Shown here piece by piece: positions 1-23,985 of a stretch of DNA of 26,484 bases. A model generated the notes under the pieces. The model was not told the DNA's origin, searched no databases, and saw only the letters and a program-made list of their open reading frames with translations. The DNA comes from Deltaproteobacteria bacterium (lineage in GTDB: Bacteria > Myxococcota_A > JAADFL01), in contig JAADFL010000068.1 in NCBI GenBank assembly GCA_013152945.1, positions 1-26,484 on the forward strand. Reading direction: 5' to 3'. A program made the position numbers and the translations under genes. The number at the start of each line of letters is the position of its first letter. Positions within the stretch are counted from its first letter, which is position 1.

Positions 1-129
1 CCCCGCACGTGAAACCAGTGCTCCTTTTTTACGGGTCACCTGGACCTGTGGACTCATATTTGTAATACTTGTACACATCAGGGAAGCAGAGAAGGGGGTG
101 GGGGGAGCATGACTCGGGTAGAAAGTCCG

Positions 130-151
130 TCCCCTGCTTATCCCCTGCTTA
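130..151. repeat. 11-nt tandem direct repeat (TCCCCTGCTTA x2)
   Basis: Two exact, adjacent copies of TCCCCTGCTTA lie at 130-140 and 141-151. The 11-nt period puts both copies on the same face of the helix, which would suit a regulator binding as a tandem dimer. They lie about 65 nt upstream of the candidate -35 box. No known regulator is recognised, and chance duplication is possible. Confidence 0.6.
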
Positions 152-216
152 TTTCTTTCAACAAGTCCACTCGATTGTATTACCGGGCCGGCCAGCGTCG
201 GCCCTCGTATTGACCT

Positions 217-244
217 TTGACAGGCCCTTGTTCTAGGATTTGAT
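217..244 (+). promoter_or_regulatory. Candidate sigma-70-type promoter for the aminotransferase-folC pair
   Basis: A consensus -35 hexamer TTGACA (217-222) is followed after 16 nt by TTTGAT (239-244), which matches four of six -10 positions. It would start RNA near 251 and leave a leader of about 80 nt before the ATG at 335. The -35 is convincing and the -10 is weak. Confidence 0.4.
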
Positions 245-321
245 TTTGATAACGGTTTACAGGCGATTCAATGGAGATTATCCGCTTAAAATCTTATTAT
301 ATCGCATGACAGTGCAACATT

Positions 322-327
322 GAAGGG
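322..327 (+). promoter_or_regulatory. Ribosome binding site that decides the aminotransferase start
   Basis: GAAGGG lies 7 nt upstream of the ATG at 335. The in-frame TTG at 320 overlaps this purine block and has no Shine-Dalgarno of its own, so the ATG is preferred. Confidence 0.6.
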
Positions 328-334
328 CTTACAC

Positions 335-1516
335 ATGATTATCAATTCAAATGTCGTCAATATACCCCCCCCACCGCTTGTCGAATTGACAGGCAACATA
401 AAGAAACTTCGGTCCCAAGGTAAACATGTCATTGACTTGAGCCAGGCCATGGTGAATTTTCCTCAGCCCCAAGGCTTTAGGGAAGGGGTGATCAAGGCCA
501 TGGAATCAGGGGCATCTGAAGCCTATGCCCCTGACCAGGGTTTGCTCGAACTCAGGGTGAAATTGGCTGACTACCTTTCTTTTGCCTTTGGCGTTACCTG
601 GGACCCTGAAGACGAGTTGATGATAACCGCCGGCGCAAACCAGGCGGCTTTCCTTGCAATGACATGCGTATTTTCGCCCGGCGACCGGGTTCTGCTGTTT
701 TCACCTTACTATTTCAATCACCACATGGCCCTTTCCATGCTCGGAACAGTACCCGAAACCGTGCAGGGCAAGCCGGAAAAGGGTTTCGTTCCAAGGCCAA
801 ACGACCTGGCCGATATCATAGATTCCAGGACAAGAGGCATTGTGATTGTCAACCCAAACAATCCCACAGGAGCACGTTACAGGAACTCTTTGTCAAAGGA
901 TCTGTGCAGCCTCACTGCTGAAAAGGATCTCTTCCTGGTTTCAGACCAGACTTACCATGAAATCTACTTTGGACTCGATGCGCCTTTGAGCCCTGCATCC
1001 GATTCATCGTGCAGAAACCGCACTGCAACGGTTGGCTCTTTCTCAAAGTCACTTGGCCTTGCAGGCTGGCGGATCGGGTTCCTGGCCGGCCCATCACCTC
1101 TTATTCGGGAAGCATTGAAAGTCCAGGACACATCTATTATCTGCGCTCCGACTGCATCGCAGCTCGGATTACTGGCAGCCCTCGATAAAGCGCCCAAACA
1201 CGTGGAACAAGTGCGGAAGGCGCTCAAGGCAAGACGGGACTCCCTGATGGAAAGCCTCTTCGATTCAGGTTACGGGGACTATTTCAGTGAACCCGGCGGA
1301 GCGGTCTTTCTGTTCTTCAAGTTGCCGAAAGGCATGGACGACATCTCTTCAAGCAGGCAGTTGCTGGAATCCAAGCTCGTTGCAGTAGTGCCGGGCAGCG
1401 TGTTCGGCCCCGGGGGTAAAGGGTACTGGCGAATCAGCTTCGGAACTGCATACAAGGAAGACCTCGTCGAGGCAGGCAAGAGGATAGCCGAGTACCTGAA
1501 AGAGAATCAAAATTGA
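335..1516 (+). CDS. PLP-dependent aminotransferase, class I/II (fold type I)
   Basis: The 393-residue product looks like a cytosolic, soluble pyridoxal-phosphate aminotransferase of the aspartate-aminotransferase superfamily, of usual length. Visible motifs are NPNNPTG (about 173-179), the D204-x-x-Y207 pair that contacts the cofactor ring and phenolic oxygen, SFSKSLG with the Schiff-base lysine at about K238, GWRIGF (about 244-249), and a late YWRISFG where the carboxylate-binding Arg normally lies. All key residues are present, so it is probably active. The amino donor and acceptor cannot be told from sequence. The start is the ATG at 335, preceded by GAAGGG; an upstream TTG at 320 is less likely. 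The stop overlaps the start of the folC-like gene, implying translational coupling. A run of eight C (365-372) encodes part of a Pro-Pro-Pro-Pro stretch near the N-terminus and is a possible slippage site. Confidence 0.9.
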   Translation: MIINSNVVNIPPPPLVELTGNIKKLRSQGKHVIDLSQAMVNFPQPQGFREGVIKAMESGASEAYAPDQGLLELRVKLADYLSFAFGVTWDPEDELMITAGANQAAFLAMTCVFSPGDRVLLFSPYYFNHHMALSMLGTVPETVQGKPEKGFVPRPNDLADIIDSRTRGIVIVNPNNPTGARYRNSLSKDLCSLTAEKDLFLVSDQTYHEIYFGLDAPLSPASDSSCRNRTATVGSFSKSLGLAGWRIGFLAGPSPLIREALKVQDTSIICAPTASQLGLLAALDKAPKHVEQVRKALKARRDSLMESLFDSGYGDYFSEPGGAVFLFFKLPKGMDDISSSRQLLESKLVAVVPGSVFGPGGKGYWRISFGTAYKEDLVEAGKRIAEYLKENQN

Positions 1517-8915: not shown

Positions 8916-9281
8916 ATGCAACAGTATGGTGCCGCTCAATTGGCTTTGTCAGATGCTTGTATGCAACAGCCCTATATCGGAACCAAAAAGAGCAGACTCC
9001 CGACTTGTTGGTGCGAGACAGACGACTTCTGCCTGCTGGTAAAATGTAAGGATATTCATGAGGATGGAGTCACCCTGATAACCCTGGCCGAAATGTCGCC
9101 AGGGGAGCAGGTAAGCCTGGAACTGTCTTCTGAGGCAGGAGTATTAAAGGCAAGGGCCGAGGTAACATGGCGTACTCCTGCGCGTGCAGAAAGGCCTGAG
9201 GCCACGGTGAATCTCAAGTTCAAGGACGTACTCCCGGAATCCAAGCCTGCCCTTGCCCGCCTGGTGAGCTTCGAGGCATAG
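8916..9281 (+). CDS. Small PilZ-like domain protein (degenerate)
   Basis: The 121-residue cytosolic protein has no leader. Residues about 25-105 follow the strand order of a PilZ barrel: a basic start (KKSRLPTC), CLLVKCKDIHEDGVTLIT where PilZ proteins have D/NxSxxG, then PGEQVSLELSSEAGVLKARAEVTW and a closing ATVNLKFKD. The arginine-rich RxxxR motif that grips cyclic di-GMP is not visible, and IHEDG replaces the usual IS-x-x-G, so c-di-GMP binding is doubtful. It may be a PilZ protein that has lost ligand binding or a related small beta-barrel. It stands alone between the divergent PEGA operon and the giant gene, whose 3' end faces it across 228 nt. It could link second-messenger state to surface structures, but nothing here proves this. 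Confidence 0.55.
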   Translation: MQQYGAAQLALSDACMQQPYIGTKKSRLPTCWCETDDFCLLVKCKDIHEDGVTLITLAEMSPGEQVSLELSSEAGVLKARAEVTWRTPARAERPEATVNLKFKDVLPESKPALARLVSFEA

Positions 9282-9509: not shown

Positions 9510-12210
9510 TTAAAACTTGCCCACCACCCTGAAGAAGAAGCCATGCCCATCTGTTACGCGGTTCTGGTACAGGTTGTCGGAAAACCTGCTGAAATTATAA
9601 CCCACACCAAGGCGCACATGGTTGAGGAATTCGTAAGACACCTCTGTAAGTAATCCCTGTTTCATGTCCAGGTCATCTTTTTTAACCCAATTCTTCATGA
9701 GCCTGTACTCGACCGCCACATCCAGCGAATTCGTGATGTGAAAGCCTACCCGGCTCAAGGAGAGCAGTGTCATTGTGCCTACCTCAGGCAAGTCACCCAC
9801 CCATTCTTTCCTGTACCTGAATGCCAGGGTCTCGGAGAGTTGCACATGAAAAGGCAGTTCGAACACAGGAACCAGGGAAATCACATCCGAATTCCACCTC
9901 TCTGGCCCGAAACCGGACATGAGGTCCCTGCGAAGTTCTATTCTCTTGGTGTACTTCAAGAGCAGGGACAGCCAGTCCAGGGCAGCGGGCCTGTAAGCCA
10001 GGCCCGTGGAGAACTCGAGGAGCAAAGCCTCGGTCCACTTGTATGACAGGTTCTCTGTCTGTGAATAGTTCAACCTGGCCAGGAAGGCCAGGTCCTTTGT
10101 CCATTGCCACGTTGCCGCGTTCAAGGTTAAAAATTGCAGCCTGTCCCTGCCGCCCCTTGATTCGTCCTGCTGGTCGTATCTTACCTCGTATCGTCCGGAA
10201 AGCTTCAGCCAATCCAGCTTCAAATACTCGTAACCCAGGGATCCGACGTTCCTGGCCGAATTGCCTGCAGAATCACTCCTGACTTGCTGTCTTTCAGCCG
10301 AGGCATCCAGGTACAGGCCCTTAGTAATCTTCCACCTGTTTGCCAGGCCCACCACGGCCCGGTTTGCATCCGGCCCCGACCCTGAATCAACCCTGTATTC
10401 CCCAAAAACCCTGCCACGCTTTGCAATCCGGTTTTCTCCACCCAGAATGGTTGTGGAAACCGTGTCTCCATCAAGGTCCAGAGTCAGCCTTTCCCGCATA
10501 TACACGTCGGTTTTCTCTGACAATGCGCTCTTGAGGCCTGCCTCCACGCCTGTGTCACCGGACCACTGTTCGCTCACCCCGGCAGTGATCCACAGGTCTT
10601 TTTCCAATTTGAAAGCGCCGCCGATGGTTGTTCGCACATCCCTGCCTGAAAAGTCCGGGGCAAGATAACCGTGGGGAATATCCACTTGTTGCTTTACATA
10701 ACCGGACCAGCGGTCGGTGAAGTTGTATTTGAATCCTGCACCGGCGGTCTCGATATGTTCCTTCATGTTTTGCCCGTCAGTGCCGTTGTTCCTTGCCGTG
10801 TACGTATGCCCGTAATCAATACTCAACGTGTAATCATGTGTGTTTCTTAAATATTTCAAAGATGATATCTGCTTGTTGAGACCGATGTCCGCCTCTCCCT
10901 TTGCTCCGGGCATGCTTGCCAGCATTCCATCGTGTCTCAAGATCAGGCGGTCTTGCCTGGTTGCCCTGAAATCCGCCGAGAATCCAAACCTGTTCTGCCC
11001 TCTTTCGTGGAGAGTATCGCCGCTGTAGAACCCGGCATCTATGGTCTGGTAGTATGCATGCAGTCCCAAAAGATCACGGTCCATGCCGAGCCATTCCGCC
11101 ACATCAGACCTTGCTTCCACCTTCAGTGCGTACCCGCCGCGACCCGCTGTTTCATCTTGCAGCGGCACAAAAGACAAGCCTCCATCCTCACTGTACGAGC
11201 TGATTCCTCCCTCTGCCTTGCTGTGGGCCAACTCGATCCTGACCTGTGACTTGTCCGTTAACTTGAGTTGTGCAGATGTGCCCCACAGCTCATATGGATT
11301 TCCCCCGGGGTTCTGCTCGGTCACGTACCCTCCTCCAAGGGTCAGCATGTTGAAGAGGGTCTGCTTTCCGTGAACTCCCCATGCCATCCTGGTGCCGTCA
11401 CCTGCAGCCTCGTAATCCGCCACGATGTACACCGGGTTGCCGTCCAGTGCCCCGCTCATTCCGGATGCAGACAGGAAAGAGGCATCGACCACGCTGGAAA
11501 CAGGGTTCTTGAGAATGATGCGTCCCTCTTGGTATCTCACCAGGTAATCCTGGTCCCGGACCAGGGGTACTGTAAGGAGCAACATGTGCGTATCCCTGTC
11601 TCTGACCATCAGAACAACCTGGTCGCTGCCTTCCACCAGGTCCATGTGTTTCAGGTAGTACACCGAGCCTCCTGTAGCGCGAAGCTCGTCATGCCCGTGA
11701 ACAGTGCCCACCCCGCTGTCGGTTACGAATGCATTCAGCTTGGATTTATAGCCCTTCAGGAACGCATGATCCAGCTTGGCCCTTGCGCCGAAACTCGTCC
11801 TTTCGAACTTGAATAGTTCACCGTCCTTCATGCCTGTATCAAAGTTGCCGACACGCAACTCGTTTGTCTTGTCGGCTTTTACAAGAAGATAGAACCTCTC
11901 CCTGCTGTTGACATCCTTAACCTCATTCGAGGCATCTCCGTACACTGGATAGTACTTTTCAGGATCGGTTATCCTGGTTATGAGGGCGCGGTCCTCCTCC
12001 TTGCCCGAATCGACATGGCCTATGATCTCATAGTCATTGAAGGGTCCCTTCCTGGTTTTTATCCTGGCCTTTAAAAAGGCTGCCGCCCTTCCATGAAGCC
12101 TGACATTCCCGCCTGCCACATCCAGGGTGGTCCGGTCGTTCATCTCGTCCAGCCTGGTATCCCTGTTGCCGATCAAGCCGTCTGCAACTGCAAGCAGGAA
12201 CCAGTAATCC
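9510..12210 (-). other. Beta-barrel module of the giant protein
   Basis: About 900 residues begin with DYWFLLAVADGLIGNRD and a pre-barrel segment containing YPVYGDASNEVKD and LRVGNFDTG. A long series of alternating polar and hydrophobic strands with aromatic girdles follows, finishing in a terminal Phe. No TonB box or plug domain is visible, so it is not a typical TonB receptor. The barrel is expected to sit in the outer membrane. Confidence 0.75.
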
Positions 12211-15200
12211 AGGTCGACCTTCACCTTTCTCTTGATGACTGCCTTGTTACCTGACGGGTCCGTGGATTCGACTATGATCTCGCTGGATTCGTCTTTTCCA
12301 TCCCCAAGGTGCACTATGTGTTCGAATATGCCTCTCTTGTCCACTTTGACTTGTTCGCCGTTCACAGTAACCCTGTTTTCAGGATCAGTGTAACCCTTGA
12401 GCCTGTACGTCTCGCTTTGAATGGGCACCCCGCTCGGGGGCAGCTCCACTGTAAGCCTGGCCGCCTTTGCATTGGTCTCGGACGGCTTGACCCTAATGGA
12501 CTTGACCGCAGGCTTTGCCCCGGTCTTGGTCGAAACAGTGGGCATCTTTGCCGGAGCATGGGGCTCTACCTTACCCCTGGCGGCTCGCGCGCCCGGGGTT
12601 TGCTTGGATACAAGGGCCGGGGTCGACCCCGGGCCGATCACATCTCCCGGTTTCATACCGGGATGGCTCTCGCCCGCTTTTACAACGGGGCGGAGAAAGG
12701 CAACATTCCCGCCAGGCCCGTGTATTTCCAGGTTCACACGGATCTTTCGCCCTCTTGGAACAGCCAGGGTGGTCTTGAAACTCGTATCCATGGCAACCGC
12801 CACTTCCCGGTTGTTCACCTTGATCCCGGGACTCGGTTTGGCCATGGCATATGAAGGAACCGGGGGAGAACCTGCCAATATCAATACCCTCCGGTTCAAC
12901 GCCCGGCTCCTCCGGTTGATGTTCGGCACCAGGGGCTTCAGGTCTCCGAGCCCGACACTCGAAACATCCTGCGGCCTGAATCCTCTCCTCAAGAGCAACC
13001 TCCTGACCGTATCGGCCCTTGCCTGGGTCAAGGCCAGCAACCTTTTCGAGTTCAATCCTTCATCCGAATGCACCTCTATGGCCACCCTTGACCCCGCCTC
13101 CCTGAGCCTCGGGATCTGTCGTTCCAACAACCATCTTCCCTTCCTGGTAAGGTTAGAACGGCCCGGAGCAAAGAGCTTGTCCGCAGAAAGGGACAACTCG
13201 AAAGACGGGCCTGTGACGAACATCGGCATGGCCGGGCTCATCCCCCTTTCGTTCTCACTGTTCCTCAACACCAGCCTGAAGAAGTACAATCCCGGTTCTA
13301 TGGTGCCCTTCTTGCCGGCAATTTTACCGTCCCAAAGTATATTTGAAGAAACTTCTCCCTTTCCTGACGCAATGACCGCAACAGGCCTGGCCAGCGAATC
13401 ATTCAACAACAGGTGCCAGGAATGGACATCCTTAACCCCGGCCGAGAGCACGAACCTGACCGGTTCCTTGAGCTTCCCTTCTTTCAATTCGACCCTGGCA
13501 ATCCCCTTGCCAGCACCTGCCACGTGACAATTTGTATTCAATAATCCCAGGTCCAGCGGACTCCCATCGATGTGAACTACCTTTTCCTTCAAATTTCCGT
13601 ACAGGTCCACCAGTGCCGTTGGTGCAGGTCCGGGTCCTGAAAGCCACATGGGCTTTTGCCCTTTTCCGCTAATAACGAGTTTCATGCCTTTTCCATCACT
13701 CCCGGCCATTTCCAGGATAAGGAGCGAATCCTTGGGCACGGAAATCCGGGCCTTGAACCTGCCTTTTGGATCGGGCTGTAACTTCATGCCGTGTAACTGT
13801 ACGAACGGCTTTTGGGGTACCGGTTTCGATGCCACGGTCTTTCCCGGCTGAAAAGGCATTAACGGGCTGAAACCAAGGGATCCACCCGATGTAACAACGA
13901 ACAGCCTGTACGTATAACTCTCGCTTGATTCGAGCAACGGGTTGCCGCGCCGATCCCTTCCGTCCCATGATATGGACGGAGGAACAGCACCCTTGCCCTC
14001 CCTCCTGTAAACAAGGGCCTTTTTTGAATCCCTTATCTCAAGAAACCATCGTTCCACCTTGTCCGTAGACAAGACCCTTGCCGAAAAGGAAACAGGCGTC
14101 TTGAACATACCCTTTTCCGATGGAGGCACCGTCTTGCCGTCGAGCAGGACCGAGACGTTTACCGGGGGTACTGCCTTGTTGTTCACGCTTACAGTCAATG
14201 TATCGAGACTTCCCTGAACGAGCAGGTTCCTGGTTTCCTCCCTTGGGCCGGCTACTTTGCCGGCGTTTGCCTCCTTGCCGGACTCTTTCAGGCCATTCTT
14301 TACAGATGTTGACTTCCCGGATTTCGAAGCCGGCGGTTTCGCCAATTCCACATAATCGGGTCTCACCCTTTGCTTTGGGCAGGTGATTCCGAAGTTGAGT
14401 TTTATGACCGCTCCGGGCGACAACCTGATCAGCCTGGTCTCATCGGTGGTAAACCTTGCTCCGGGCGGCAATGTATGTGCGGCCGCCTTGAAGGCCCTTA
14501 TCCCGGGCGGTAGGTCCTGGAGATGATACTTCCCACTGCCGTCCGTAACCGAGTACCTGCCGGTATCCGAGTACACTTCCGCACCAGCCACTCCGGACTC
14601 GCCCAGGTCCTGGACTCCATTCTTGTTGGTATCACAAAACACCTTGCCCAGCACGTAACCCCGGTCGAACAGTGGGTCGTGAACCACCCTGATCCTTGCC
14701 GTGGCCGGCTCGGATATGTCCATTGCGGCTCCGCCGATTCCCGGCGCCGCCCCTGCCTTCAGAACCGCCTTTGCCTGTACATAACCTTCGTGACTCGCAC
14801 CTCCTGCCACGGCCTGGAACATCAAGCCCGCCTTGCCTCCACTGTAAAGGCTCAAGGGACCGAAAAGCATGCTTCTGCCCCCTGCGACTCCGCCGGTCGA
14901 GGCCAGGGAGTAACGCACAGCCTTGCCGTTACTCTTTTCCAGGGAAGCCCGGGCGCTTCCACGGACGTACCTGAATCCCTTGGGCAGAAAGACCTGCACG
15001 TATACACCATTGGAGCCGTTGTCAGTAGTCAGGTCCCTTGCAGAATCGTTCTCCGCTTCTGCAAGGAAGGTGACTACTTCGCCCTGCTCGATCTCCCTCT
15101 TGTTGGCCCTCAAGTCGAACTTGATATCCCTGCCTATGGGATCGACCGGAATGTGGTTGTGGTGCACTACCCGCTTATCGCCTTCCACTTGAAGTTCAAG

Positions 15201-18200
15201 GTAGTAATGGAGGTCCGAGCCCAAGTCGGGTTCTGCCTTTGGAACAACGAAATCATACTTTTCATCTCCCTTTGCAGGACCCTTTGCCGGGGGAGGCGAG
15301 TTGGAGGGGAACAGCATGAGGTTTCCCGGAGGTTCAACGTCTATTGTGTAATTACCTGCAGGCGGATCGAACTCGTACACACCGTACTTTCCGGTAACCT
15401 GCCCTTGCTGGCCTTCAGGCAAATCCTTTTCATCAAGGGCTTTTCCCTTGTTTCCATCGGCTGACGGGTCATATTCGTATATTGTAACCTTTGCTCCAAC
15501 CAAAAGATTTCCAGTGCTCGACACATAGATCCTGCCTGTGGGATTGATTGCGAGATTCCTGGTTACCACCTGGTCCGGCTTTACCTCTCCTTCAAGATCC
15601 ACCATGGACAGCAACGCTCCACCAGGGGTGTACACCTTCAAGCTGTACTTCCCGGGCGCCGGCAGGTTCATGGATTGGAACTCTCCCTTTGAATCGGTCT
15701 TCACTTCTGCCAGAGGTTTTGCGCTCGTATCGTAAGAAGGAACCACGACTACCTTGTAACCTTCGAACAAGGCATCAGGCTCTTTACCGTCCAGGTCCAG
15801 GACACCGTTCGGCTCCCCCCGGTCTTCGAATACCCGACCCCTTACAGCAGCGGCTCCCTGGACCTGACCCACAACGACCACCGCCGGCTCGGTCTCGAAC
15901 TCGTCTATTCCCGTGGCTGACACGGATGCCTTGTTTGATATCCGGCTCAGTCTGGGAGTCTCCGGATCGATCTTCACCCTGAACTTAATCACTGCAGAGC
16001 CTCCGGCAGGCACACTGACGGAGTCGACCGCAACTATTCCCTTTCCGCCCTTTCCCGCCGGCGGAGGAATAAACTTACCCGATGCACCGGCCGGCACGAC
16101 AAGGCTGTTTTGCACGTAATCCACCTGGGCGGGCAAATCATCTTTCACAGAAGCATCGTCAACCTGGTCAGGCCCGGGGTTGAACAAGGTGATGGAGTAC
16201 TCCAACTCATCTCCCGGCAGCACACTGCCGCCGTCCACGTCTTTTACCGTCTTTTCGGCCTGCAGGTTCCTGACATAGCCTACAGGCGTTCTGGTAGGCT
16301 GATCACCATTGGCATCATTGCCGTCGCTGTCAGTCGGTTCCACGCCAAGATTGTCTGCAGTGACCGAACCCTGGTTGGAGACGATGCCCTCTGACCGGGC
16401 AGTCACCTTGAACCCTATTTCGACAGAGCCCAGTACGCCTATTTCAGGAATCTCGACATTTATGTTCGTCCCATCAAAGTAACCCTGGTCCTGGTCCTGC
16501 CCGTCGGTAAGCGACTTTCCATCCAAGGTCAGGCTGCCGTTCACATAATTTGCAAGAGCAGGTATGGGATCGATGAATCTCACGTTCTTTGCAGGGGCTG
16601 TGCCCGAGTTCGTAATGGTAACCTTGTATGTTATGTCCTCTCCCGGCCGCACCCTCGATGGAGATGCGGTCTTTGTGGTGCCTGACAGGTCCGCGGTTTT
16701 GCCCACGGTCACAATCGTGGCATCGTCCGGGCCCGGCGATCTCGGATCGTCGGACAAGAAGACCCTTCCACCATCATCGGAGATCTCCGCCTGGTTGGAT
16801 ATGACGCTCCCCAAGGGGGCATCGTCCCGTACCCTTACCTTGAACTCCACCCAGGCAGAGCCGCCGGATGCCCATATCACCCCGTCCGGAGCCCCTGCCG
16901 ATGATATCGGCATGCCTTGCGGCCTGGTGAACATCGGTTTTCCCTGGTCGTCGGGCACAGGTGTTCCGTCAAGCCTGGTGCTGCCCGGCACGTATTCGGT
17001 CCTCGCAGGTATCATGTCCCGCATAACAGCAGCCGTGCTGTCTTCAGGCCCATCATTGAATATGGTTATCTTGTAAGTAACCTCGTCACCTGCCGCCACC
17101 TCCCTGTCAGGGTGACTGGGCACGGTCTTTTCGGTCCTGGAAAAATCGACCGGATCGAGGATGTTGAACGAGGTGGGATCTCCCTTGTCAGGTGTCCTCG
17201 GATCGTCGCTCTTGGCGTTCTCCTTGCCTTGTACGAAAAACACGGCCTGGTTGCTCACGGTTCTGGGCATGGCGTTTTGAGCAATCACACCCGAGAAATG
17301 GAGGGTCAACGAGGTTCCAGGGCCCAGATCTTTGAGATTCCAGGTAATGGTATGTGTATTCGTATCATAATCGTACTGGAAACCATCGTCTGCCACGGTC
17401 ACCGATTCCAACTGTAACGGAACAGGGTCCCGTACCTCCACGTCCTTGCCCGTGGCATTGGAAAGTTCGAGCGCATAATCCACCCTGGCGCCCCTCCGCA
17501 AGGGAGTGGACAAGGGGACCTCCACGTTATTCACAAAGATCCTTTTTTCGAATATCACCTGGGACACCACCGTGACCTTGGTCGGATCGTTCGGCTCCGG
17601 CGACATGGGATCGTCGGTGAGCCCCTTGATAACGCCCTGGTCCGCGGACAACGAGCCCTGGTTCAGGATTACCCTGCCGTTCTCCACGGTTCCTTTGACC
17701 CGGGCTACAAACTCGAAGGACGCAAACGTGCCTGCGGCAAGGGTCTGTGTCGAGAAGGTGATCGTGCCCGTATCCCGGTCGAACACCCCGTCGCCCGACA
17801 CGTATTCCAGGTTGTCCGTGTCCAGGGGGTCCAAGACCTTGAGACCGGAGGCATCCAGGTTGCCCTTGTTGGTCACGCGAATGAGGTACTTCACTTCCTG
17901 GCCCGGCTCCACCTGCCTGCCCGGAGACTCCACGTCCTTGGTCGCACCCGACAGGTCGGGGTAGTCTACGTGCACCAACGTGGGCTGCCTGCCGTTCGAC
18001 GGGTCATTGTCTCCGTCCGAGAGTATCTCCGAGCCCGAGAGCCTGAGATGGGCCTGGTTCTGCACAACCGAACCTGCTTTCGTACCTGCCTTTACCTTGG
18101 CCGTGTAGGTGACTTCCTTGCTCTCTCCGGGCTGCAGGCCGAAGGGATCGGTAACAATGGAGCCTGATACCAGTCTTCCGCCACTGATAGACCCGGGCAC

Positions 18201-21200
18201 GATTTCGATCCGGGCAGGCAAGGGATCAATGATCGTAAGAATATCCGGTTCCGGTGTCGGTGCCCCTCCTGAATTGGTTACCCTAATTTTGTAATGAAGC
18301 TCTGTATAACCCGGGTAAACGGCCTTGGGATTGCCCTTGGCGTTGACTACCTGCACTGTCTTTGTGAAGTTCGACAAGTCCGGAGCACACGACACCCTGA
18401 TCCATGTCTTGCCGTCACCAGGCAGGCCCGGCGGCGAATCCGCATCCTGGCTCAAGTACGTCGATGTATTTTCCGCCGACACCGACGCCTGGTTGGACAC
18501 GTCTACAGGCTTGGCCTTGCACTCTACCCTGACGATTACCTTAAAGGTCGCCGTGGCCTTTTCTGCAGCATCGAGGCTATTGATGGTCCAGGTCAGGTCA
18601 TTGCCCTGGAATGCGGCCGAGCCCTTGCTCACTGCAAGTGAATCCGGGACCACCTCCAGGCCGCTGTCAATCGTGTCGTTTATGACAACCTGGTTTGCCG
18701 GACCTGTGCCCGTGTTCTCCAGGTTCAGGCTGTAAGCAACCTCGTCACCGGGCTTGACGAACCTCTTGTCCGCGGTCTTGGTGAAGCTCCAGAAGGCAGG
18801 CCCGTTCTCGACCTTCACAGATGTCGGCTCGTGCACACCGTTGTCCACGGAACCGTCACGCGGGTCGTCTGAAAGAATCGGATTGGATGTATCGCCGTCC
18901 ACAACCAGCCCTGCCTGGTTCGAAAATGTACCGTTTGCATGAGGCCTTACAACAGTGGCGGAAAAACCGAGGTCCACCTCCTGCCCGGGGGCCAGGCCGG
19001 CCAGGGCCGGCACCTGTGCCGCTGTCCAAATAATGGCTTTTTCCTGCTGGTTGAAAACTCCCTTTCCAGGATCGATGTCCGTCAGCCAGCCCCCGTCCAG
19101 GAGGTCTTTCAATGGTTCCACCACTGCGAGGTTCCTTGCAGACATCGTACTTGCCGGCTCATGGAATACCTTGAGCTTGTAGTTGAGCCGCCTGCCCGGT
19201 ACGACCGAGCCATCGGCCGGCAAGGGCGCATCCACATCCTTTGAAAACGCGAGCAGTACCTGCGAGTCTATCAAGAGGCTCGCAGAAGACTTGAGCGGTT
19301 GCTCGAGTTCGTTGGCGGTCAGCACCGCCTCGTTGATTATCGTGTCCCTGTCAAGGGGCGGGGGTTTCAACCTCGCATTGATTACCAGGGACAGGGTATC
19401 TCCCGGAGCCAGGCTGTCTATGCTCCACTGAACGGAGCGGTCCTGGTCGTTCCAGGTCGCACCGGGGGCTGCGACGAAATCAAGTCTGAAGTCCAGTACA
19501 TCCCGGATCACGATGCCTGTTGCAGCCGCAGAGCCCTGGTTCTGCACTGTGATGGTAAACTCCACGTCAGCACCCGGCTTGGCCTTGCCGCCGGTCGGAA
19601 CAGTGACAGCCTTTTGCATTACCAGCACGGGCGTGAGTTTCACGGGCACCTGTACGCACGGCACATCGGTCCAACCGGGCGTCTCGTCGCTTTTCACCCT
19701 GCCGCAGTTACGGAAACCGGTGGAAGGAGGCCTGTCCTTAAGCCTTGCTTTCAATTGAACTGTCTTTTTACCGCCGGGTTCGATGTTTCCCAGGTTGAAT
19801 GTTACGACACCTGTATTGGAATCATATGAATCCCCGCCAGAAATGTAATCCACGTAAGCAAGGTCCAGGGGATCTTCGAGCAGGGTATTATTTGCAGCCG
19901 TGCCCGAATTGACTATATCGAAGGTAAATGTCAGTTCCTGGCCCGGTAGTGCAGGCGGCCCTGTCTCATTCGACCAGGTCTTTGTAGAATCATCAAACAC
20001 CGGCCTGTTTACAACTATTACCTTTGGTGCCTCAAGGACCAGGTCCGGGTCCGGATCCATGTCCACAAGGGCCGTGTTCCCGATTTCAGCTCCATGGGAT
20101 GCATTCGCCTTGATCGACGCAGTAAACACCAGCCTGGCCGAACCTTTGGGCGGAACCGGAAATGCCGTGGGATCGTCGTACAGGATCGATTTTCCGGCTA
20201 TGTGGACAGGCCTTAAGCTGCTATTCGCGAGATCTATCACCGGGTTTTCAAGCAAGGGGTCCAGGTTGTCCACCAGGCCGCGTATGACTGCAGGCCTGTT
20301 CCCGGTGTTTCTAACCAGGATGGTGTAGGTAAGACTCGTTCCTGGTGTTACAGGGTCTGCGCCTGCAGCTACCGTCTTGGAGGAAGATGACAGGATCGGT
20401 GCGTACACCAGTGTTATCCTGGTCGGATCCTCGTTGCTGGTCGGGTCCTTGGGATCGTCTGTCAGCAGGTCCTCCACCAGGTACGGCGCATGAAAGATCC
20501 CCTGGTTCTCCATGACCAGGCCGTCTATCTCATCGACTCCTGTTCCGTTTGCCGTGAACTCGTCCTCGGAGAAAACCTTGGCCTCGATGGTTATCTCCGC
20601 GGTCCATCCCTGTGGTATGGTTATGTCGTCAACCTGTACGAGCCACTTGCCGTCCTTGAATTGGACAGTAGCCGTGCTGCCGCTTGGTCCCTGGACCAGT
20701 GGTTGAAAATTCTGACTGAAGTACGGGGGGAGTTCGTCCGTGAAGCTTATCCCGCCTGCGGGTTTAGCGCCGTCGTTGTCGAGCCTTATGGTGTACTTGA
20801 TCCTGGATTCAGGTCCGGGCACATCGAATGGACCCGGCACCAAGCTCCATGTCTTGGTTGCCGCTCCAAGTTCGGGCGCAATAACCGTGGTGATGGCCCG
20901 GCCCACTTCGATCGGCGGATCTATCTCGTTCGAGCCCACTGTGGCCACATTTGTTATATCCGAGCCTGCCGGCGCATCCGCAGCGACCTTTACCTTGAAT
21001 TCCACCTGCACCTGGTAACTCGGGTCCGGGTACAGGCCCATGTCTCCGAGGGCCAAACCTGTTTCAAGGGCGCTCTTGCCTCCAATGTCGGGAACAAAGC
21101 CTCCTCCAATGATCCTGGTGCTGCCCGGCACGTACTCGGTGTGGGCGGGCGCATGGTCGTACAATATGACATTGGTCGCGGAATCGCTCCCGGTGTTGGT

Positions 21201-22379
21201 CAACTTCAAGGTATATGTTAGCACCTCGCCGGGTGATGCCTCTTTCTTGTCGACCGTCTTGTCTGTAAGGTTGTTATCGAAATTGGGAGCCAGCGTATCG
21301 AGGGCAAGGGCAACCCATCCGAGTATCACCATGTCGTGACTGGTAAACTCCGGGTCCACCACGCCCGGAACTCCGTCACCGCTACCGCAGTCCACGTGCA
21401 TTCGGGTCTGGCCGGATTTCAGAATCCCAAGACCCTTGTCTCCGATGTCGAAGTGGTCGATGTCCACGCCAAGGGCCTCGGAGCTGTTCCAAAGGTTATA
21501 AGGCGGGTTCTCGTGAACACCGGGCCTGCTCGGGTTCCAGAGGAGAGAGCCGTTCAGCTTCATCCAGTCGCCGTTGGTCTGGGGGAACGGCGGACTGCCG
21601 AGTTGCTGGTCGCCTTCCAGGCCGAAAAGCGTGAACTCGCCCCTGGGCGGATCTCCCACGAGAAAATCGGAAAGATCGAACGAGGTGACGCCGTTGAAAT
21701 CTATCTCCGGGTCGTCGTTTCTTTCCTGCATGGCCATAAAGCCGTCGTAAAGCACGACATCCCTGCGTTTTCCATAGGAGTTCGACTCCCACACTATGCT
21801 TATTGCAAAAGCCCCGTACCTTGCCTGGCAGTTTGCATCCACACTGCAGTCCCCTTCCTTGGCGTACATGTTGGAAAGGGTATATATTCCGTTGTAGTTT
21901 CCTTTGCCCTGTGCCTTTACCAGGCTGGTAATGTCCCTGCGGCAATAATAGAACCCGCCATACGAGGAAATGGTCTCGCACCTTGCAGGGCCTGGAGCGA
22001 TGTCATCGGCCCAGAGATTGGAAAAAGCTGTTCCGTCTGCAAGTATAAGGTCCACGTACTCGTCAGGCTGTCCGCCCTCCTCGGGTGGTGCGTCCATGGA
22101 ACCGCTCCACCACAGGTACGCCTTTACGGCCTGGGCATCCAGGGGAATGCCCTTGATATCCACCGAGTTCTCGGACTTGAGCCACCTGTTTGCATAGTAC
22201 TGGTAGTCTGCATCCATCATTGTGGCGCCTGCAGTGGTAACAGAGCCCCAGATACGGTCATGGTACAGCATGGACGGAGTGGTGCCCTCTACAACCGCAC
22301 TTGCCTCCTTACCGGCAAAGAGGACCGGCAGCATTGCTGCAAGCAGGGACAAGCCCTTTATGGCAGGACTCAATCTCAC
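9510..22379 (-). CDS. Giant outer-membrane protein: DUF11 rod, SdrD-B-like and FlgD-like domains, OmpA domain, C-terminal beta-barrel
   Basis: The 4,289-residue product is uninterrupted. Order from the GTG at 22379: signal peptide (about 1-28, ending ASA); cap domain (about 30-355) with five Cys; 13 DUF11 repeats (about 360-2174); carboxypeptidase-regulatory-like domains (about 2177-2360); a divergent DUF11-like unit (about 2417-2570); an SdrD-B-like unit with DTNKNGVQDLGE (about 2572-2634); two FlgD-like units with WDG cores (about 2774-2830 and 2984-3039); an OmpA peptidoglycan-binding domain (about 3060-3167); a basic Ala/Pro linker; an Ig-like domain; and a beta-barrel (about 3390-4289) ending GHGFFFRVVGKF, a BAM-type terminal-Phe signal. 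I recall similar DUF11-OmpA-barrel proteins in other proteobacteria, but function is unproven. An adhesion or envelope-bridging role is inferred. GTG 22379 is preferred because AAGGAGGT precedes it and the leader then begins correctly; another GTG at 22418 lacks this. Confidence 0.9.
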   Translation of the reverse strand: MRLSPAIKGLSLLAAMLPVLFAGKEASAVVEGTTPSMLYHDRIWGSVTTAGATMMDADYQYYANRWLKSENSVDIKGIPLDAQAVKAYLWWSGSMDAPPEEGGQPDEYVDLILADGTAFSNLWADDIAPGPARCETISSYGGFYYCRRDITSLVKAQGKGNYNGIYTLSNMYAKEGDCSVDANCQARYGAFAISIVWESNSYGKRRDVVLYDGFMAMQERNDDPEIDFNGVTSFDLSDFLVGDPPRGEFTLFGLEGDQQLGSPPFPQTNGDWMKLNGSLLWNPSRPGVHENPPYNLWNSSEALGVDIDHFDIGDKGLGILKSGQTRMHVDCGSGDGVPGVVDPEFTSHDMVILGWVALALDTLAPNFDNNLTDKTVDKKEASPGEVLTYTLKLTNTGSDSATNVILYDHAPAHTEYVPGSTRIIGGGFVPDIGGKSALETGLALGDMGLYPDPSYQVQVEFKVKVAADAPAGSDITNVATVGSNEIDPPIEVGRAITTVIAPELGAATKTWSLVPGPFDVPGPESRIKYTIRLDNDGAKPAGGISFTDELPPYFSQNFQPLVQGPSGSTATVQFKDGKWLVQVDDITIPQGWTAEITIEAKVFSEDEFTANGTGVDEIDGLVMENQGIFHAPYLVEDLLTDDPKDPTSNEDPTRITLVYAPILSSSSKTVAAGADPVTPGTSLTYTILVRNTGNRPAVIRGLVDNLDPLLENPVIDLANSSLRPVHIAGKSILYDDPTAFPVPPKGSARLVFTASIKANASHGAEIGNTALVDMDPDPDLVLEAPKVIVVNRPVFDDSTKTWSNETGPPALPGQELTFTFDIVNSGTAANNTLLEDPLDLAYVDYISGGDSYDSNTGVVTFNLGNIEPGGKKTVQLKARLKDRPPSTGFRNCGRVKSDETPGWTDVPCVQVPVKLTPVLVMQKAVTVPTGGKAKPGADVEFTITVQNQGSAAATGIVIRDVLDFRLDFVAAPGATWNDQDRSVQWSIDSLAPGDTLSLVINARLKPPPLDRDTIINEAVLTANELEQPLKSSASLLIDSQVLLAFSKDVDAPLPADGSVVPGRRLNYKLKVFHEPASTMSARNLAVVEPLKDLLDGGWLTDIDPGKGVFNQQEKAIIWTAAQVPALAGLAPGQEVDLGFSATVVRPHANGTFSNQAGLVVDGDTSNPILSDDPRDGSVDNGVHEPTSVKVENGPAFWSFTKTADKRFVKPGDEVAYSLNLENTGTGPANQVVINDTIDSGLEVVPDSLAVSKGSAAFQGNDLTWTINSLDAAEKATATFKVIVRVECKAKPVDVSNQASVSAENTSTYLSQDADSPPGLPGDGKTWIRVSCAPDLSNFTKTVQVVNAKGNPKAVYPGYTELHYKIRVTNSGGAPTPEPDILTIIDPLPARIEIVPGSISGGRLVSGSIVTDPFGLQPGESKEVTYTAKVKAGTKAGSVVQNQAHLRLSGSEILSDGDNDPSNGRQPTLVHVDYPDLSGATKDVESPGRQVEPGQEVKYLIRVTNKGNLDASGLKVLDPLDTDNLEYVSGDGVFDRDTGTITFSTQTLAAGTFASFEFVARVKGTVENGRVILNQGSLSADQGVIKGLTDDPMSPEPNDPTKVTVVSQVIFEKRIFVNNVEVPLSTPLRRGARVDYALELSNATGKDVEVRDPVPLQLESVTVADDGFQYDYDTNTHTITWNLKDLGPGTSLTLHFSGVIAQNAMPRTVSNQAVFFVQGKENAKSDDPRTPDKGDPTSFNILDPVDFSRTEKTVPSHPDREVAAGDEVTYKITIFNDGPEDSTAAVMRDMIPARTEYVPGSTRLDGTPVPDDQGKPMFTRPQGMPISSAGAPDGVIWASGGSAWVEFKVRVRDDAPLGSVISNQAEISDDGGRVFLSDDPRSPGPDDATIVTVGKTADLSGTTKTASPSRVRPGEDITYKVTITNSGTAPAKNVRFIDPIPALANYVNGSLTLDGKSLTDGQDQDQGYFDGTNINVEIPEIGVLGSVEIGFKVTARSEGIVSNQGSVTADNLGVEPTDSDGNDANGDQPTRTPVGYVRNLQAEKTVKDVDGGSVLPGDELEYSITLFNPGPDQVDDASVKDDLPAQVDYVQNSLVVPAGASGKFIPPPAGKGGKGIVAVDSVSVPAGGSAVIKFRVKIDPETPRLSRISNKASVSATGIDEFETEPAVVVVGQVQGAAAVRGRVFEDRGEPNGVLDLDGKEPDALFEGYKVVVVPSYDTSAKPLAEVKTDSKGEFQSMNLPAPGKYSLKVYTPGGALLSMVDLEGEVKPDQVVTRNLAINPTGRIYVSSTGNLLVGAKVTIYEYDPSADGNKGKALDEKDLPEGQQGQVTGKYGVYEFDPPAGNYTIDVEPPGNLMLFPSNSPPPAKGPAKGDEKYDFVVPKAEPDLGSDLHYYLELQVEGDKRVVHHNHIPVDPIGRDIKFDLRANKREIEQGEVVTFLAEAENDSARDLTTDNGSNGVYVQVFLPKGFRYVRGSARASLEKSNGKAVRYSLASTGGVAGGRSMLFGPLSLYSGGKAGLMFQAVAGGASHEGYVQAKAVLKAGAAPGIGGAAMDISEPATARIRVVHDPLFDRGYVLGKVFCDTNKNGVQDLGESGVAGAEVYSDTGRYSVTDGSGKYHLQDLPPGIRAFKAAAHTLPPGARFTTDETRLIRLSPGAVIKLNFGITCPKQRVRPDYVELAKPPASKSGKSTSVKNGLKESGKEANAGKVAGPREETRNLLVQGSLDTLTVSVNNKAVPPVNVSVLLDGKTVPPSEKGMFKTPVSFSARVLSTDKVERWFLEIRDSKKALVYRREGKGAVPPSISWDGRDRRGNPLLESSESYTYRLFVVTSGGSLGFSPLMPFQPGKTVASKPVPQKPFVQLHGMKLQPDPKGRFKARISVPKDSLLILEMAGSDGKGMKLVISGKGQKPMWLSGPGPAPTALVDLYGNLKEKVVHIDGSPLDLGLLNTNCHVAGAGKGIARVELKEGKLKEPVRFVLSAGVKDVHSWHLLLNDSLARPVAVIASGKGEVSSNILWDGKIAGKKGTIEPGLYFFRLVLRNSENERGMSPAMPMFVTGPSFELSLSADKLFAPGRSNLTRKGRWLLERQIPRLREAGSRVAIEVHSDEGLNSKRLLALTQARADTVRRLLLRRGFRPQDVSSVGLGDLKPLVPNINRRSRALNRRVLILAGSPPVPSYAMAKPSPGIKVNNREVAVAMDTSFKTTLAVPRGRKIRVNLEIHGPGGNVAFLRPVVKAGESHPGMKPGDVIGPGSTPALVSKQTPGARAARGKVEPHAPAKMPTVSTKTGAKPAVKSIRVKPSETNAKAARLTVELPPSGVPIQSETYRLKGYTDPENRVTVNGEQVKVDKRGIFEHIVHLGDGKDESSEIIVESTDPSGNKAVIKRKVKVDLDYWFLLAVADGLIGNRDTRLDEMNDRTTLDVAGGNVRLHGRAAAFLKARIKTRKGPFNDYEIIGHVDSGKEEDRALITRITDPEKYYPVYGDASNEVKDVNSRERFYLLVKADKTNELRVGNFDTGMKDGELFKFERTSFGARAKLDHAFLKGYKSKLNAFVTDSGVGTVHGHDELRATGGSVYYLKHMDLVEGSDQVVLMVRDRDTHMLLLTVPLVRDQDYLVRYQEGRIILKNPVSSVVDASFLSASGMSGALDGNPVYIVADYEAAGDGTRMAWGVHGKQTLFNMLTLGGGYVTEQNPGGNPYELWGTSAQLKLTDKSQVRIELAHSKAEGGISSYSEDGGLSFVPLQDETAGRGGYALKVEARSDVAEWLGMDRDLLGLHAYYQTIDAGFYSGDTLHERGQNRFGFSADFRATRQDRLILRHDGMLASMPGAKGEADIGLNKQISSLKYLRNTHDYTLSIDYGHTYTARNNGTDGQNMKEHIETAGAGFKYNFTDRWSGYVKQQVDIPHGYLAPDFSGRDVRTTIGGAFKLEKDLWITAGVSEQWSGDTGVEAGLKSALSEKTDVYMRERLTLDLDGDTVSTTILGGENRIAKRGRVFGEYRVDSGSGPDANRAVVGLANRWKITKGLYLDASAERQQVRSDSAGNSARNVGSLGYEYLKLDWLKLSGRYEVRYDQQDESRGGRDRLQFLTLNAATWQWTKDLAFLARLNYSQTENLSYKWTEALLLEFSTGLAYRPAALDWLSLLLKYTKRIELRRDLMSGFGPERWNSDVISLVPVFELPFHVQLSETLAFRYRKEWVGDLPEVGTMTLLSLSRVGFHITNSLDVAVEYRLMKNWVKKDDLDMKQGLLTEVSYEFLNHVRLGVGYNFSRFSDNLYQNRVTDGHGFFFRVVGKF
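12880..13200 (-). other. OmpA-type peptidoglycan-binding domain of the giant protein
   Basis: The segment has the OmpA-C signature: LFAPGRSNLTRKGRWLLE, VAIEVHSDEG with the Asp that binds diaminopimelate, LALTQARADTVRRLLLRRG with the partner Arg, SVGLGDLKPLVPN, and RALNRRVLIL. Both ligand-contact positions are kept, so it should hold peptidoglycan in the periplasm. It lies N-terminal to the barrel, the reverse of the order in OmpA itself. Confidence 0.8.
14480..15860 (-). other. Carboxypeptidase-regulatory/SdrD-B-like and divergent DUF11 segment
   Basis: Read N to C, the segment holds RGRVFEDRGEPNGVLDLDG with following strands ending in SLKVYTPGG. A second similar unit (RIYVSSTGNLLVGAKVTIYEYD...) comes next, then a divergent DUF11-like domain (REIEQGEVVTFLAEAEN...). 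The last unit is SdrD-B-like (VLGKVFCDTNKNGVQDLGE...GKYHLQDLPPG), whose Asp/Asn loop is a likely calcium site. These rigid beta-domains link the repeat rod to the FlgD-like and OmpA part. Confidence 0.7.
15860..21300 (-). repeat. Thirteen DUF11 (TIGR01451-type) protein repeats
   Basis: Thirteen units of roughly 140 residues each open with a KT(V/A/W) segment, a PG-x-x-(I/V/L)-x-Y motif and N(S/T/D)G, then a D-P-(I/L)-P or similar core, and close with (S/I)NQA or a variant. Eight units (2 and 6-12) end in an acidic linker of the type SDDPRSPGPDDAT, a feature that may bind calcium. The copies have diverged, although units 1 and 11 share YVPGSTR and a near-identical DNA block (about 16974-17000 and 21114-21140). 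Confidence 0.85.
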
Positions 22380-22389: not shown

Positions 22390-22397
22390 ACCTCCTT
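22390..22397 (-). promoter_or_regulatory. Strong Shine-Dalgarno deciding the giant-gene start
   Basis: On the minus strand AAGGAGGT ends 10 nt before the GTG at 22379. The spacing is slightly long, but the match to anti-Shine-Dalgarno is complete, and the following codons give a clean signal peptide. Confidence 0.6.
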
Positions 22398-22510: not shown

Positions 22511-22564
22511 TTGTATGAAAATTGCGGACAAAAACGCTTGTCAGCCATATTTTCAGCCGACCCC

Positions 22565-22592
22565 TTGTATTTGCCATACCTTGTCCTATAAT
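22565..22592 (+). promoter_or_regulatory. Candidate promoter of the DUF218 lipoprotein gene
   Basis: TTGTAT (22565-22570), a 16-nt spacer and a perfect TATAAT (22587-22592) precede the start codon by 1 to 7 nt. Transcription would begin around 22599, at or inside the start region, suggesting a leaderless mRNA starting at the ATG at 22600. Confidence 0.5.
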
Positions 22593-22593
22593 C

Positions 22594-23985
22594 ATGAGCA
22601 TGCTCTTTTGGCGAAATGTTTTCCCCAGGTTGATTTCAGACATGCTCGTGCTGGCAGCTTGCATATCGCTTGCAAACTGCTCGGGCGGCAACGGCCCGGA
22701 GCTTGAAACAGGCAGGGAAGTCCAAACTGACAGCGAAACAGATAGTCCGGATGCTGAAGCTGCAACAGACAACGAAGCGGAAAACCCGGCCGTTCCTTCA
22801 CTCGATCCCTCTGCATGTAAGCCTGCGGCTCCCTTCGACTGGAAGGGCGCGGATAAAAATTACGAGTTTGTGTCCGGCAATGATTTTGTTCAGGACAAGA
22901 ATTTCTATCTCCTTACGTTGTTCGAACGCCTCGATTCTGTAAAGAGCGAGCTTTTGTCGGACAATCAAATTTCAGCGATTTCGAAAGACCGGGACCAATC
23001 GCTTCGGCAAGCAGTGACCGGGTGTGGAACAGACGCGGACTGCTATTCAAATAAATTGCTTTGGAACGACGACCAAGTAAGTGAGGCTGCAGGAGCCCTG
23101 GCATCGGCCTTGATCGACCGTGCCGGGGACACGGCATTTATAACGAATCACTTGAGGGCATCAGGCATGTTTGCGCTCTTTTGTGACAAGAGCGACAGGG
23201 ACTTGTTGATTTCGGCCTGGACCCATACCATGACCGGCCTGTGCAAGGCGTTCGGAAAGTTCGGCCAAGGCCTTGCACCGGATGAACTGCAAGGCCTGGT
23301 GAAACAAGTCAGTAACAATCACCCAGGGCCGTTGCTCATGTTCGAGCCCCTGCTGTACGTTGCACTTGGAGCAATGGCAAAAGACGGGCGCGACGAAGCG
23401 GGGCGCTACGAGCCTTTGGCACAAGGCGAAAACAGAGTGGCCCTGGATTACATCCGAAACATTAACTGGGACGACTATGCCTTCAGTGTCATTCTGGTGC
23501 CCGGGCTCGGTCCAAAGACCCTGGACGAACCCTTGTCAGAAGGCGGCAAGATGCAATGTGACCTCGGCTTTGCGCGCTGGCATGCAGGGCTTGCACCGAT
23601 TATCGTTACTTCCGGAGGACACGTTCATCCGGATCGTACTCCTTATTGCGAGGCCATAGAGATGAAGCACTACCTGATGGAGACATACGGTGTGCCGGAA
23701 AGGGCGATACTCGTGGATCCCCATGCAAGGCACACCACCACGAACCTGCGCAATACTGCGAGGCTGATACTGCGATATGGAATCCCGCCCGACAAGCCGG
23801 CGTTGTCGACCACGAACTGGGCACAAAACAGGTCGATCGGAGGAGGAGGCCTTGGCGACAGATGCAAGGATGAACTCGGTTATGTGCCGTTTCGAAAGAG
23901 TGCAATTCTCTCGGACAATGATTCGTGCTGGCTTCCGGCGGTAACTGCGCTGTACGCCGACCCCCTGGATCCCCTGGATCCATGA
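22594..23985 (+). CDS. DUF218/YdcF-family (ElyC/SanA-like) lipoprotein
   Basis: The product (463 residues from ATG 22594) has a lipoprotein leader with two overlapping lipoboxes, LAAC (Cys23) and LANC (Cys29). An acidic low-complexity stretch follows. A middle part of about 220 residues, mainly helical with a few Cys (GCGTDADC), is not recognised. The C-terminal third is a DUF218/YdcF domain: VILVPGLG, IIVTSGGHVHPD, YCEAIEMKHYLMETYGVPERAILVDPHARHTTTNLRN, the order expected for this family linked to envelope biogenesis. No Shine-Dalgarno precedes either ATG (22594 or 22600), while a perfect TATAAT sits just upstream. A shorter start at 22642 would leave too small a leader. The last codons are a 9-nt duplication (CCCCTGGAT x2) giving PLDPLDP. 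It is divergent from the giant gene and converges on the symporter gene with a 15-nt gap. Confidence 0.82.
   Translation: MSMLFWRNVFPRLISDMLVLAACISLANCSGGNGPELETGREVQTDSETDSPDAEAATDNEAENPAVPSLDPSACKPAAPFDWKGADKNYEFVSGNDFVQDKNFYLLTLFERLDSVKSELLSDNQISAISKDRDQSLRQAVTGCGTDADCYSNKLLWNDDQVSEAAGALASALIDRAGDTAFITNHLRASGMFALFCDKSDRDLLISAWTHTMTGLCKAFGKFGQGLAPDELQGLVKQVSNNHPGPLLMFEPLLYVALGAMAKDGRDEAGRYEPLAQGENRVALDYIRNINWDDYAFSVILVPGLGPKTLDEPLSEGGKMQCDLGFARWHAGLAPIIVTSGGHVHPDRTPYCEAIEMKHYLMETYGVPERAILVDPHARHTTTNLRNTARLILRYGIPPDKPALSTTNWAQNRSIGGGGLGDRCKDELGYVPFRKSAILSDNDSCWLPAVTALYADPLDPLDP

What the first reader, a model, noticed from the sequence alone, without database searches (positions are those of the whole stretch)
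9510..22379. A 4,289-residue protein that joins a DUF11 rod, a peptidoglycan anchor and an outer-membrane barrel
One uninterrupted gene, almost half of the window, encodes an exported chain with a cap domain, 13 DUF11 repeats, further Ig-like and SdrD-B-like domains, an OmpA domain with both ligand residues, and a barrel of about 900 residues ending in Phe. One molecule could hold the cell wall, sit in the outer membrane and carry a very long arm. I recall smaller or related DUF11-OmpA-barrel proteins, but no defined role. This is the best candidate here for an undescribed envelope system.
Basis: partly seen in the sequence, partly recalled or inferred. Interest (0 to 1): 0.75.

Follow-up and report, generated by a model that had tools for sequence, protein, structure and literature searches.

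The report
Giant rod-and-barrel outer-membrane protein
One bacterial gene encodes a very long chain of immunoglobulin-like beads joined to a cell-wall anchor and a predicted giant membrane pore; relatives in hundreds of species keep the same parts, either as one chain or as neighbouring genes, so this looks like a widespread, unnamed machine for displaying long fibres on the cell surface.

Summary
The minus-strand gene 22379..9510 (4,289 aa; Shine-Dalgarno AAGGAGG 11 nt before the GTG) has a signal peptide, a cap, 13 DUF11 repeats, SdrD_B and Ig-like domains, an OmpA domain with both ligand residues (Asp3119, Arg3134) and a ~900-residue barrel ending in Phe. Of 94 distinct loci, 48 are fused and 35 split with the rod immediately upstream, and the state changes at least six times on the barrel tree. 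Rod and barrel are therefore one system. The barrel fits no Pfam barrel family and is often labelled 'TonB-dependent receptor'; at least 544 stretches in a species-level genome collection encode it. AlphaFold models of two distant members give ~40-42 strands, more than SprA (36). Tip domains are swapped between lineages while the base stays constant. In some relatives the rod is several proteins, each ending before the last DUF11 strand, and the next gene usually begins with such a strand. I infer a wall-tethered surface rod that the giant barrel exports and anchors (about 60% likely). Export direction and energy source are untested.

The parts
9510..22379 (-). Whole gene, 4,289 aa, single exported chain
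   Evidence: ORF and translation; start at GTG 22379 with Shine-Dalgarno upstream
22391..22397 (-). Shine-Dalgarno AAGGAGG, 11 nt before the GTG
   Evidence: read from sequence
22296..22379 (-). Signal peptide VRLSPAIKGLSLLAAMLPVLFAGKEASA (residues 14-41)
   Evidence: sequence; charged start, hydrophobic core, AxA-like end
21249..22295 (-). N-terminal cap (tip) domain, residues 42-390; no Pfam family and no PDB profile match
   Evidence: conserved in Myxococcota relatives at 36-39% identity
15912..21236 (-). Thirteen DUF11 repeats, residues 395-2169 (the rod)
   Evidence: Pfam PF01345; iterated profile
15114..15806 (-). CarboxypepD_reg/SdrD-like domains, about residues 2205-2435
   Evidence: Pfam PF13620/PF17210/PF13715 stretches
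14664..15101 (-). Degenerate DUF11-like domain directly before SdrD_B, about residues 2440-2585
   Evidence: position of the last DUF11 domain found by profile in relatives and sequence; not scored by the profile in the window itself
14385..14648 (-). Barrel-proximal SdrD_B domain with the family motif ending LNFGI, residues 2591-2678
   Evidence: PF17210; same domain at the barrel-proximal end of nearly all split rods
14223..14384 (-). Low-complexity, Lys/Pro/Ser-rich linker, residues 2679-2732; candidate segment threading the barrel
   Evidence: sequence; function inferred
13194..14222 (-). Ig-like domains (FlgD_ig-like), residues 2733-3075
   Evidence: weak Pfam match (E 0.024) at 2784-2828
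12879..13175 (-). OmpA peptidoglycan-binding domain, residues 3082-3180; ligand Asp3119 (13062-13064) and Arg3134 (13017-13019)
   Evidence: PF00691 over cut-off; PDB OmpA relatives; D/R check
12213..12455 (-). Ig-like (Glucodextran_B) domain before the barrel, residues 3322-3402
   Evidence: PF09136; strands in the model
9513..12212 (-). Giant beta-barrel, residues 3403-4302, about 40-42 strands, ends GFFFRVVGKF
   Evidence: AlphaFold2; structure comparison; family alignment
11439..11678 (-). Conserved insert after strand 7 (ATGGSVYYL..GSDQV..VRDRDTH..DYLVRYQEGRI), candidate plug or cap, residues 3581-3660
   Evidence: alignment and model; role inferred

Best explanation
It is a self-contained surface-rod display system. 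SHOWN by sequence: rod (DUF11/SdrD_B), OmpA wall-binding module and barrel form one evolutionary unit that exists as one chain or as neighbouring genes. SHOWN by prediction only: the C-terminal ~900 residues form one very large closed beta-barrel of about 40-42 strands. INFERRED: Sec carries the chain to the periplasm and BAM inserts the barrel. The rod crosses the outer membrane through the barrel lumen (about 6 nm wide by geometry, so whole Ig domains could fit). The OmpA domain stays in the periplasm and holds peptidoglycan. The SdrD_B domain and linker sit at or in the barrel, so that a rod of roughly 60-70 nm with a cap at its tip stands on the cell, probably for adhesion or contact. Folding of the Ig domains outside could pull the chain through, as proposed for intimin. 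Where rod and barrel are separate proteins, the barrel must act in trans, as channel, dock or both.
For: Fused in 48 and split with the rod immediately upstream in 35 of 94 distinct barrel loci; only 4 without a rod in reach, at least one of them at a contig edge. At least 6 fused/split changes on the barrel tree. Four annotated plasmid pairs overlap by 4 nt, as in translational coupling. Both split partners carry signal peptides in many loci. Nearly all split rods end in the same SdrD_B motif, often followed by an OmpA-like domain, intact or degenerate. OmpA Asp/Arg pair kept in the window and many relatives. Two AlphaFold models, from the window and from an Erythrobacter split barrel, agree on ~40-42 strands. 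SprA is the solved barrel matched over the greatest length in the second model (644 aligned residues, Z 14.3). Tips are swapped while the base is constant: Myxococcota cap, NHL propeller, Invasin_D3/Big_1, CshA repeats, GEVED. Rod length varies from 0 to 26 DUF11 repeats. Within close pairs the rod diverges more than the barrel.
Against: No experiment. Sidedness is not shown: an OmpA domain C-terminal to the rod also fits a rod lying in the periplasm. In many split rods only ~10-20 residues join SdrD_B to the OmpA-like domain, which is tight for crossing a barrel. The models came without coordinates or PAE, so closure and strand number rest on secondary structure and on alignments to porins; the odd count of 41 in one model shows an error of a strand or two. 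No energy source or chaperone was seen nearby. A conserved insert could plug the barrel for good.
Confidence: 0.6

Rival explanations
1. Periplasmic scaffold: barrel in the outer membrane, OmpA on the wall, and the DUF11 rod lies within the periplasm as a spacer or tether, like the DUF11-containing OmcB of the chlamydial envelope.
For: OmpA domain lies between rod and barrel, and in several split systems at the rod's C-terminus; short SdrD_B-to-OmpA linkers; weak Chlam_OMP6 match to a repeat.
Against: Rod length varies from 0 to 26 DUF11 repeats, far beyond periplasm width if it stands upright; tip modules include adhesin-type domains (CshA, Invasin_D3) and are swapped between lineages.
Confidence: 0.17
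2. Large-substrate transporter: the barrel imports or exports another cargo (polymer, protein), and the rod is its receptor or sieve.
For: Barrels are annotated as TonB-dependent receptors in public records; predicted lumen and conserved insert.
Against: No TonB plug or barrel Pfam model in any of 22 members at E<=1; no conserved neighbour other than the rod in the annotated plasmid loci.
Confidence: 0.15
3. Distant relative of SprA: a type 9-like translocon with a built-in adhesin and a CRD-OmpA module comparable to PorE.
For: SprA top Foldseek match for the window model (E 1.4e-7) and longest coverage for the second model (644 residues); insert after strand 7, where SprA also has one (PMC9127263).
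Against: Many unrelated barrels score about as well; no SprA_N (PF14349) match in 22 members; profile search of PDB sequences does not find SprA at E<=10. Large barrels may simply look alike.
Confidence: 0.08

Closest known systems
Type Ve (inverse) autotransporters: intimin, invasin
   Same: Barrel plus chain of Ig-like passenger domains capped by a tip domain; some have a periplasmic wall-binding domain (PMC6555100)
   Different: There the barrel is N-terminal and 12-stranded with the passenger C-terminal; here the order is mirrored, the barrel has ~40 predicted strands and belongs to another family, and rod and barrel are often separate genes
Type Va autotransporters
   Same: N-terminal passenger, C-terminal barrel, C-terminal Phe
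   Different: 12-stranded PF03797 barrel; no OmpA module; no two-gene form
Type Vb two-partner secretion (TpsA/TpsB)
   Same: Adjacent genes for a very long exported protein and its outer-membrane partner
   Different: TpsB is an Omp85 barrel with POTRA domains, absent here; here the conserved rod end is the C-terminal one, not an N-terminal TPS domain
SprA/Sov, type 9 secretion translocon
   Same: Very large single-chain barrel (36 strands, PMC9127263), insert after strand 7; T9SS PorE pairs a carboxypeptidase-regulatory-like fold with OmpA
   Different: No sequence match to PF14349; no other T9SS part tested here; here the cargo is encoded with the barrel
Chaperone-usher pili (FimD)
   Same: Ushers among the best structural matches; multi-subunit relatives show Ig subunits lacking the last strand
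   Different: No usher Pfam match; the window's rod is one covalent chain; no PapD-like chaperone seen

Membership tests
DUF11 repeat protein (PF01345) | Profile match over the curated cut-off | tested here: met
   376 bits vs 24.6, 13 repeats
OmpA-like peptidoglycan-binding domain (PF00691) | Profile match over the curated cut-off | tested here: met
   37.5 vs 27.2 bits
OmpA-like peptidoglycan-binding domain (PF00691) | Asp and Arg (spacing 15) that hold diaminopimelate | tested here: met
   Asp3119, Arg3134; binding itself not tested
Type Va/Vc autotransporter barrel | 12-stranded PF03797/PF03895 barrel | tested here: not met
   ~40 strands predicted; no PF03797; only weak YadA_anchor (best E 0.044) in 4 of 22 members
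Type Ve inverse autotransporter | N-terminal barrel followed by passenger | tested here: not met
   barrel is C-terminal
Two-partner secretion TpsB (Omp85) | POTRA domains plus Omp85 barrel | tested here: not met
   no POTRA or Omp85 Pfam match in the window protein, and none listed for 22 barrel members or for split barrel proteins scanned whole
TonB-dependent receptor (its public label) | plug PF07715 and barrel PF00593 | tested here: not met
   no match at E<=1 in 22 barrel members nor in the window protein; whole split barrel proteins L036, L110, L118 likewise at E<=0.1
SprA/Sov (T9SS translocon) | PF14349 sequence match | tested here: not met
   none of 22 members; none in own genome, but the controls did not ring
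SprA/Sov (T9SS translocon) | very large single-chain barrel | tested here: inconclusive
   predicted ~40-42 strands; SprA aligned over 644 residues
Chaperone-usher system | usher barrel PF00577 | tested here: not met
   no match in 22 members
Chaperone-usher system | donor-strand exchange between Ig subunits | tested here: inconclusive
   not applicable to the window's single chain; sequence signature found in relatives

The most novel reading that the evidence does not exclude
An unnamed class of outer-membrane display system, spread over at least eight diderm phyla. A ~40-strand barrel, larger than any single-chain barrel in the sources I read, exports and anchors DUF11 rods. Some members assemble the rod from separate proteins by donor-strand complementation: each subunit stops before the last DUF11 strand and the next subunit starts with it. 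The window's 4,289-residue chain is the fully covalent form of such a fibre.
Probability: 0.4. Interest if true: 0.9.

Novelty: new variant of a known kind. Interest (0 to 1): 0.75.

Why it matters
If right, a large set of proteins now called 'TonB-dependent receptor', 'OmpA family protein' or 'DUF11 domain-containing protein' belongs to one surface-fibre system. It would give DUF11, a very common repeat of unknown role, a defined context in diderm bacteria, and add the largest predicted single-chain outer-membrane barrel that I know of. It would also offer a compact model for how folded Ig fibres cross the outer membrane without a known motor.

Tried and rejected
(1) A single-sequence genome-contig scan found nothing; the alignment-based scan worked. 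(2) Paper searches for DUF11 with OmpA, barrel, TonB, two-partner secretion or giant found no description; PMC6304850 and PMC3751524 were prefix false hits (DUF1178 and others) and PMC12282271 mostly so (DUF1194; its single DUF11 mention seen is a domain architecture). (3) SprA membership by sequence: no support. (4) Cap domain: no Pfam or PDB profile match. (5) Conserved accessory genes: Kelch proteins precede several freshwater Myxococcota giants but not the window, so not part of the system. (6) A profile of the DUF11 last strand was too weak on short N-termini (3 of 18); the simpler N[TSRQ][AG] motif, chosen after reading the sequences, was used instead. (9) No Rfam match in the window. 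(10) No promoter- or terminator-like site at the gene's 3' end.

Full report
OBSERVATION. The finding describes a minus-strand gene. Numbers here count from 22418. Pfam finds DUF11 (E 2.9e-114), SdrD_B, Glucodextran_B and OmpA, all over cut-off. An iterated DUF11 profile finds 13 repeats between 395 and 2169. The OmpA domain keeps Asp3119 and Arg3134 at the spacing of 15 known for diaminopimelate binding (from general knowledge of OmpA). The window is one whole contig (C68) of a 4.84 Mb, 94% complete genome, in the phylum of MAGs that the other collection names Myxococcota (G036 = L046 and others). DUF11 was found nowhere else in that genome.

BARREL. Two AlphaFold2 models were made. The window's residues 3300-4302 with 74 relatives gave pLDDT 85 and pTM 0.80. 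A split-type barrel protein from an Erythrobacter (L120) with 50 relatives gave pLDDT 80 and pTM 0.76. Counting strands of seven or more residues gives 41 in the window model and, by my reading of the output, about 42 in the second. An odd number cannot close with both ends periplasmic. A 24-residue strand of the window model is two strands in the second, so 40-42 is my estimate. Structural alignments to porins use the first and the last strands together (model 104..1003 and 235..1133), as expected of a closed barrel. The second model matches SprA over 644 residues, far more than the smaller porin and usher barrels listed. A 2022 review calls SprA, with 36 strands, the largest single-chain outer-membrane barrel known (PMC9127263). 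I had no coordinates and no PAE, so size and closure remain predictions. Pfam has no model for this barrel: 22 members show only weak matches to generic barrel families.

FAMILY. Phyla named for these loci are Myxococcota, Pseudomonadota, Nitrospirota, Omnitrophota, Elusimicrobiota, Campylobacterota, Fusobacteriota and Thermodesulfobacteriota. Within the window's phylum 71 of 282 genomes have it, usually one copy.

FUSED OR SPLIT. Each locus was scored with my own profiles for DUF11, SdrD_B, OmpA and barrel. After removing seven duplicate loci, 48 are fused, 35 are split with the rod gene immediately upstream, 4 have no rod in reach (one lies at a contig edge, another has unknown bases) and 7 are cut by contig ends. 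In annotated plasmids the pair overlaps by 4 nt in four cases. On the barrel tree the state changes at least six times. Many partners of split pairs have a recognisable signal peptide. So rod and barrel belong together and covalent linkage is optional. Limits: the 80 loci are the best-scoring ones, not a random sample, the tree is a quick one, and the signal-peptide test is a simple hydrophobicity rule.

BASE AND TIP. Nearly all split rods end in one SdrD_B domain with the motif TTENPRVVRLTxGKxxKxNFG (in L101 no SdrD_B was found; in L020 the reading frame runs off before the motif), mostly followed by an OmpA-like domain that is intact in some and has lost the Asp in others. The window has the same motif region (LPPGARFTTDETRLIRLSPGAVIKLNFGI). 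At the other end the domains differ: a ~350-residue cap in Myxococcota, an NHL propeller in L061, Invasin_D3/Big_1 in L064 and L075, CshA repeats in L097, GEVED in L096. A constant base and exchanged tips, with 0 to 26 DUF11 repeats between, is the pattern of surface adhesins. This is inference by analogy, not proof of location.

SUBUNIT RODS. In several relatives (Sphingomonadales, Granulosicoccaceae, Nitrospirota, divergent Myxococcota) the rod is spread over two to four genes. All 17 usable subunit proteins that end in a DUF11 domain stop at profile position 72-75 of 93, after the penultimate strand; of 792 internal domains only 47 stop that early (Fisher p 2e-20). The next gene's mature N-terminus carries the missing strand's N[TSRQ][AG] motif in 11 of 17 cases against 43 of 819 controls (p 2.7e-10). 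In L120 the ends read ...SATLKYSCQIN* and then, after a signal peptide, QQAVNTATIGVPAG..., which joined would read as an ordinary DUF11 domain. This suggests donor-strand complementation between subunits. The motif was chosen after looking at these sequences and related loci are not independent, so the second p-value is optimistic.

MECHANISM. I favour a wall-tethered surface rod, exported and held by the giant barrel (0.60). The linker 2679-2732 or the SdrD_B region would lie in the barrel. By barrel geometry (general knowledge), 40 strands give a diameter of about 7 nm, wide enough for an Ig domain. Rivals are a periplasmic scaffold (0.17), a transporter with a receptor arm (0.15) and a true SprA relative (0.08).

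KNOWN SYSTEMS. It works most like intimin-type display in mirror order (PMC6555100), with a two-gene form reminiscent of two-partner secretion, but defining features of types Va, Vb, Ve, ushers, TonB receptors and SprA were tested by sequence and not met. I therefore call it a new variant of a known kind; a separate class is possible.

Noticed in passing
L120:3062-9410, L107:1-3641, L121:1-9284, L155:3577-11975, L156, L157, L069, L068: Rod subunit genes that end exactly before the last DUF11 strand, with the next gene's mature N-terminus usually starting with such a strand: a likely donor-strand-complemented DUF11 fibre.
   Followed up: partly
window 8880-9281 (+): PilZ-domain protein (c-di-GMP binding candidate) convergent with the 3' end of the giant gene; possible regulator of a surface adhesin.
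   Followed up: no
window 4334-5284 (+): AmmeMemoRadiSam system protein B (Memo) with what reads as a lipoprotein signal (MMVAAC), an unusual exported form.
   Followed up: no
window 22522-23985 (+): DUF218 domain protein with a lipoprotein-like signal, divergent from the giant gene and sharing its upstream region.
   Followed up: no
window 5870-7363 (-): Formylglycine-generating-enzyme-like (FGE-sulfatase) domain in a Cys-rich, lipoprotein-like protein beyond the giant gene's 3' end.
   Followed up: no
window 25518-26483 (-): Contig-edge fragment with repeated EEKCNGEDDNCNGVIDEGC (MopE-type, putative metal-binding) motifs.
   Followed up: no
L026, L027, L030, L032 and L034, upstream of the giant gene: Several Myxococcota giants are preceded by ~600-700 aa same-strand ORFs; Kelch-type repeats were found in the three scanned (L027, L030, L032).
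   Followed up: partly
L073:3685-8684: An Omnitrophota barrel without upstream rod is followed by two SdrD_B-bearing proteins, perhaps a reversed gene order.
   Followed up: no
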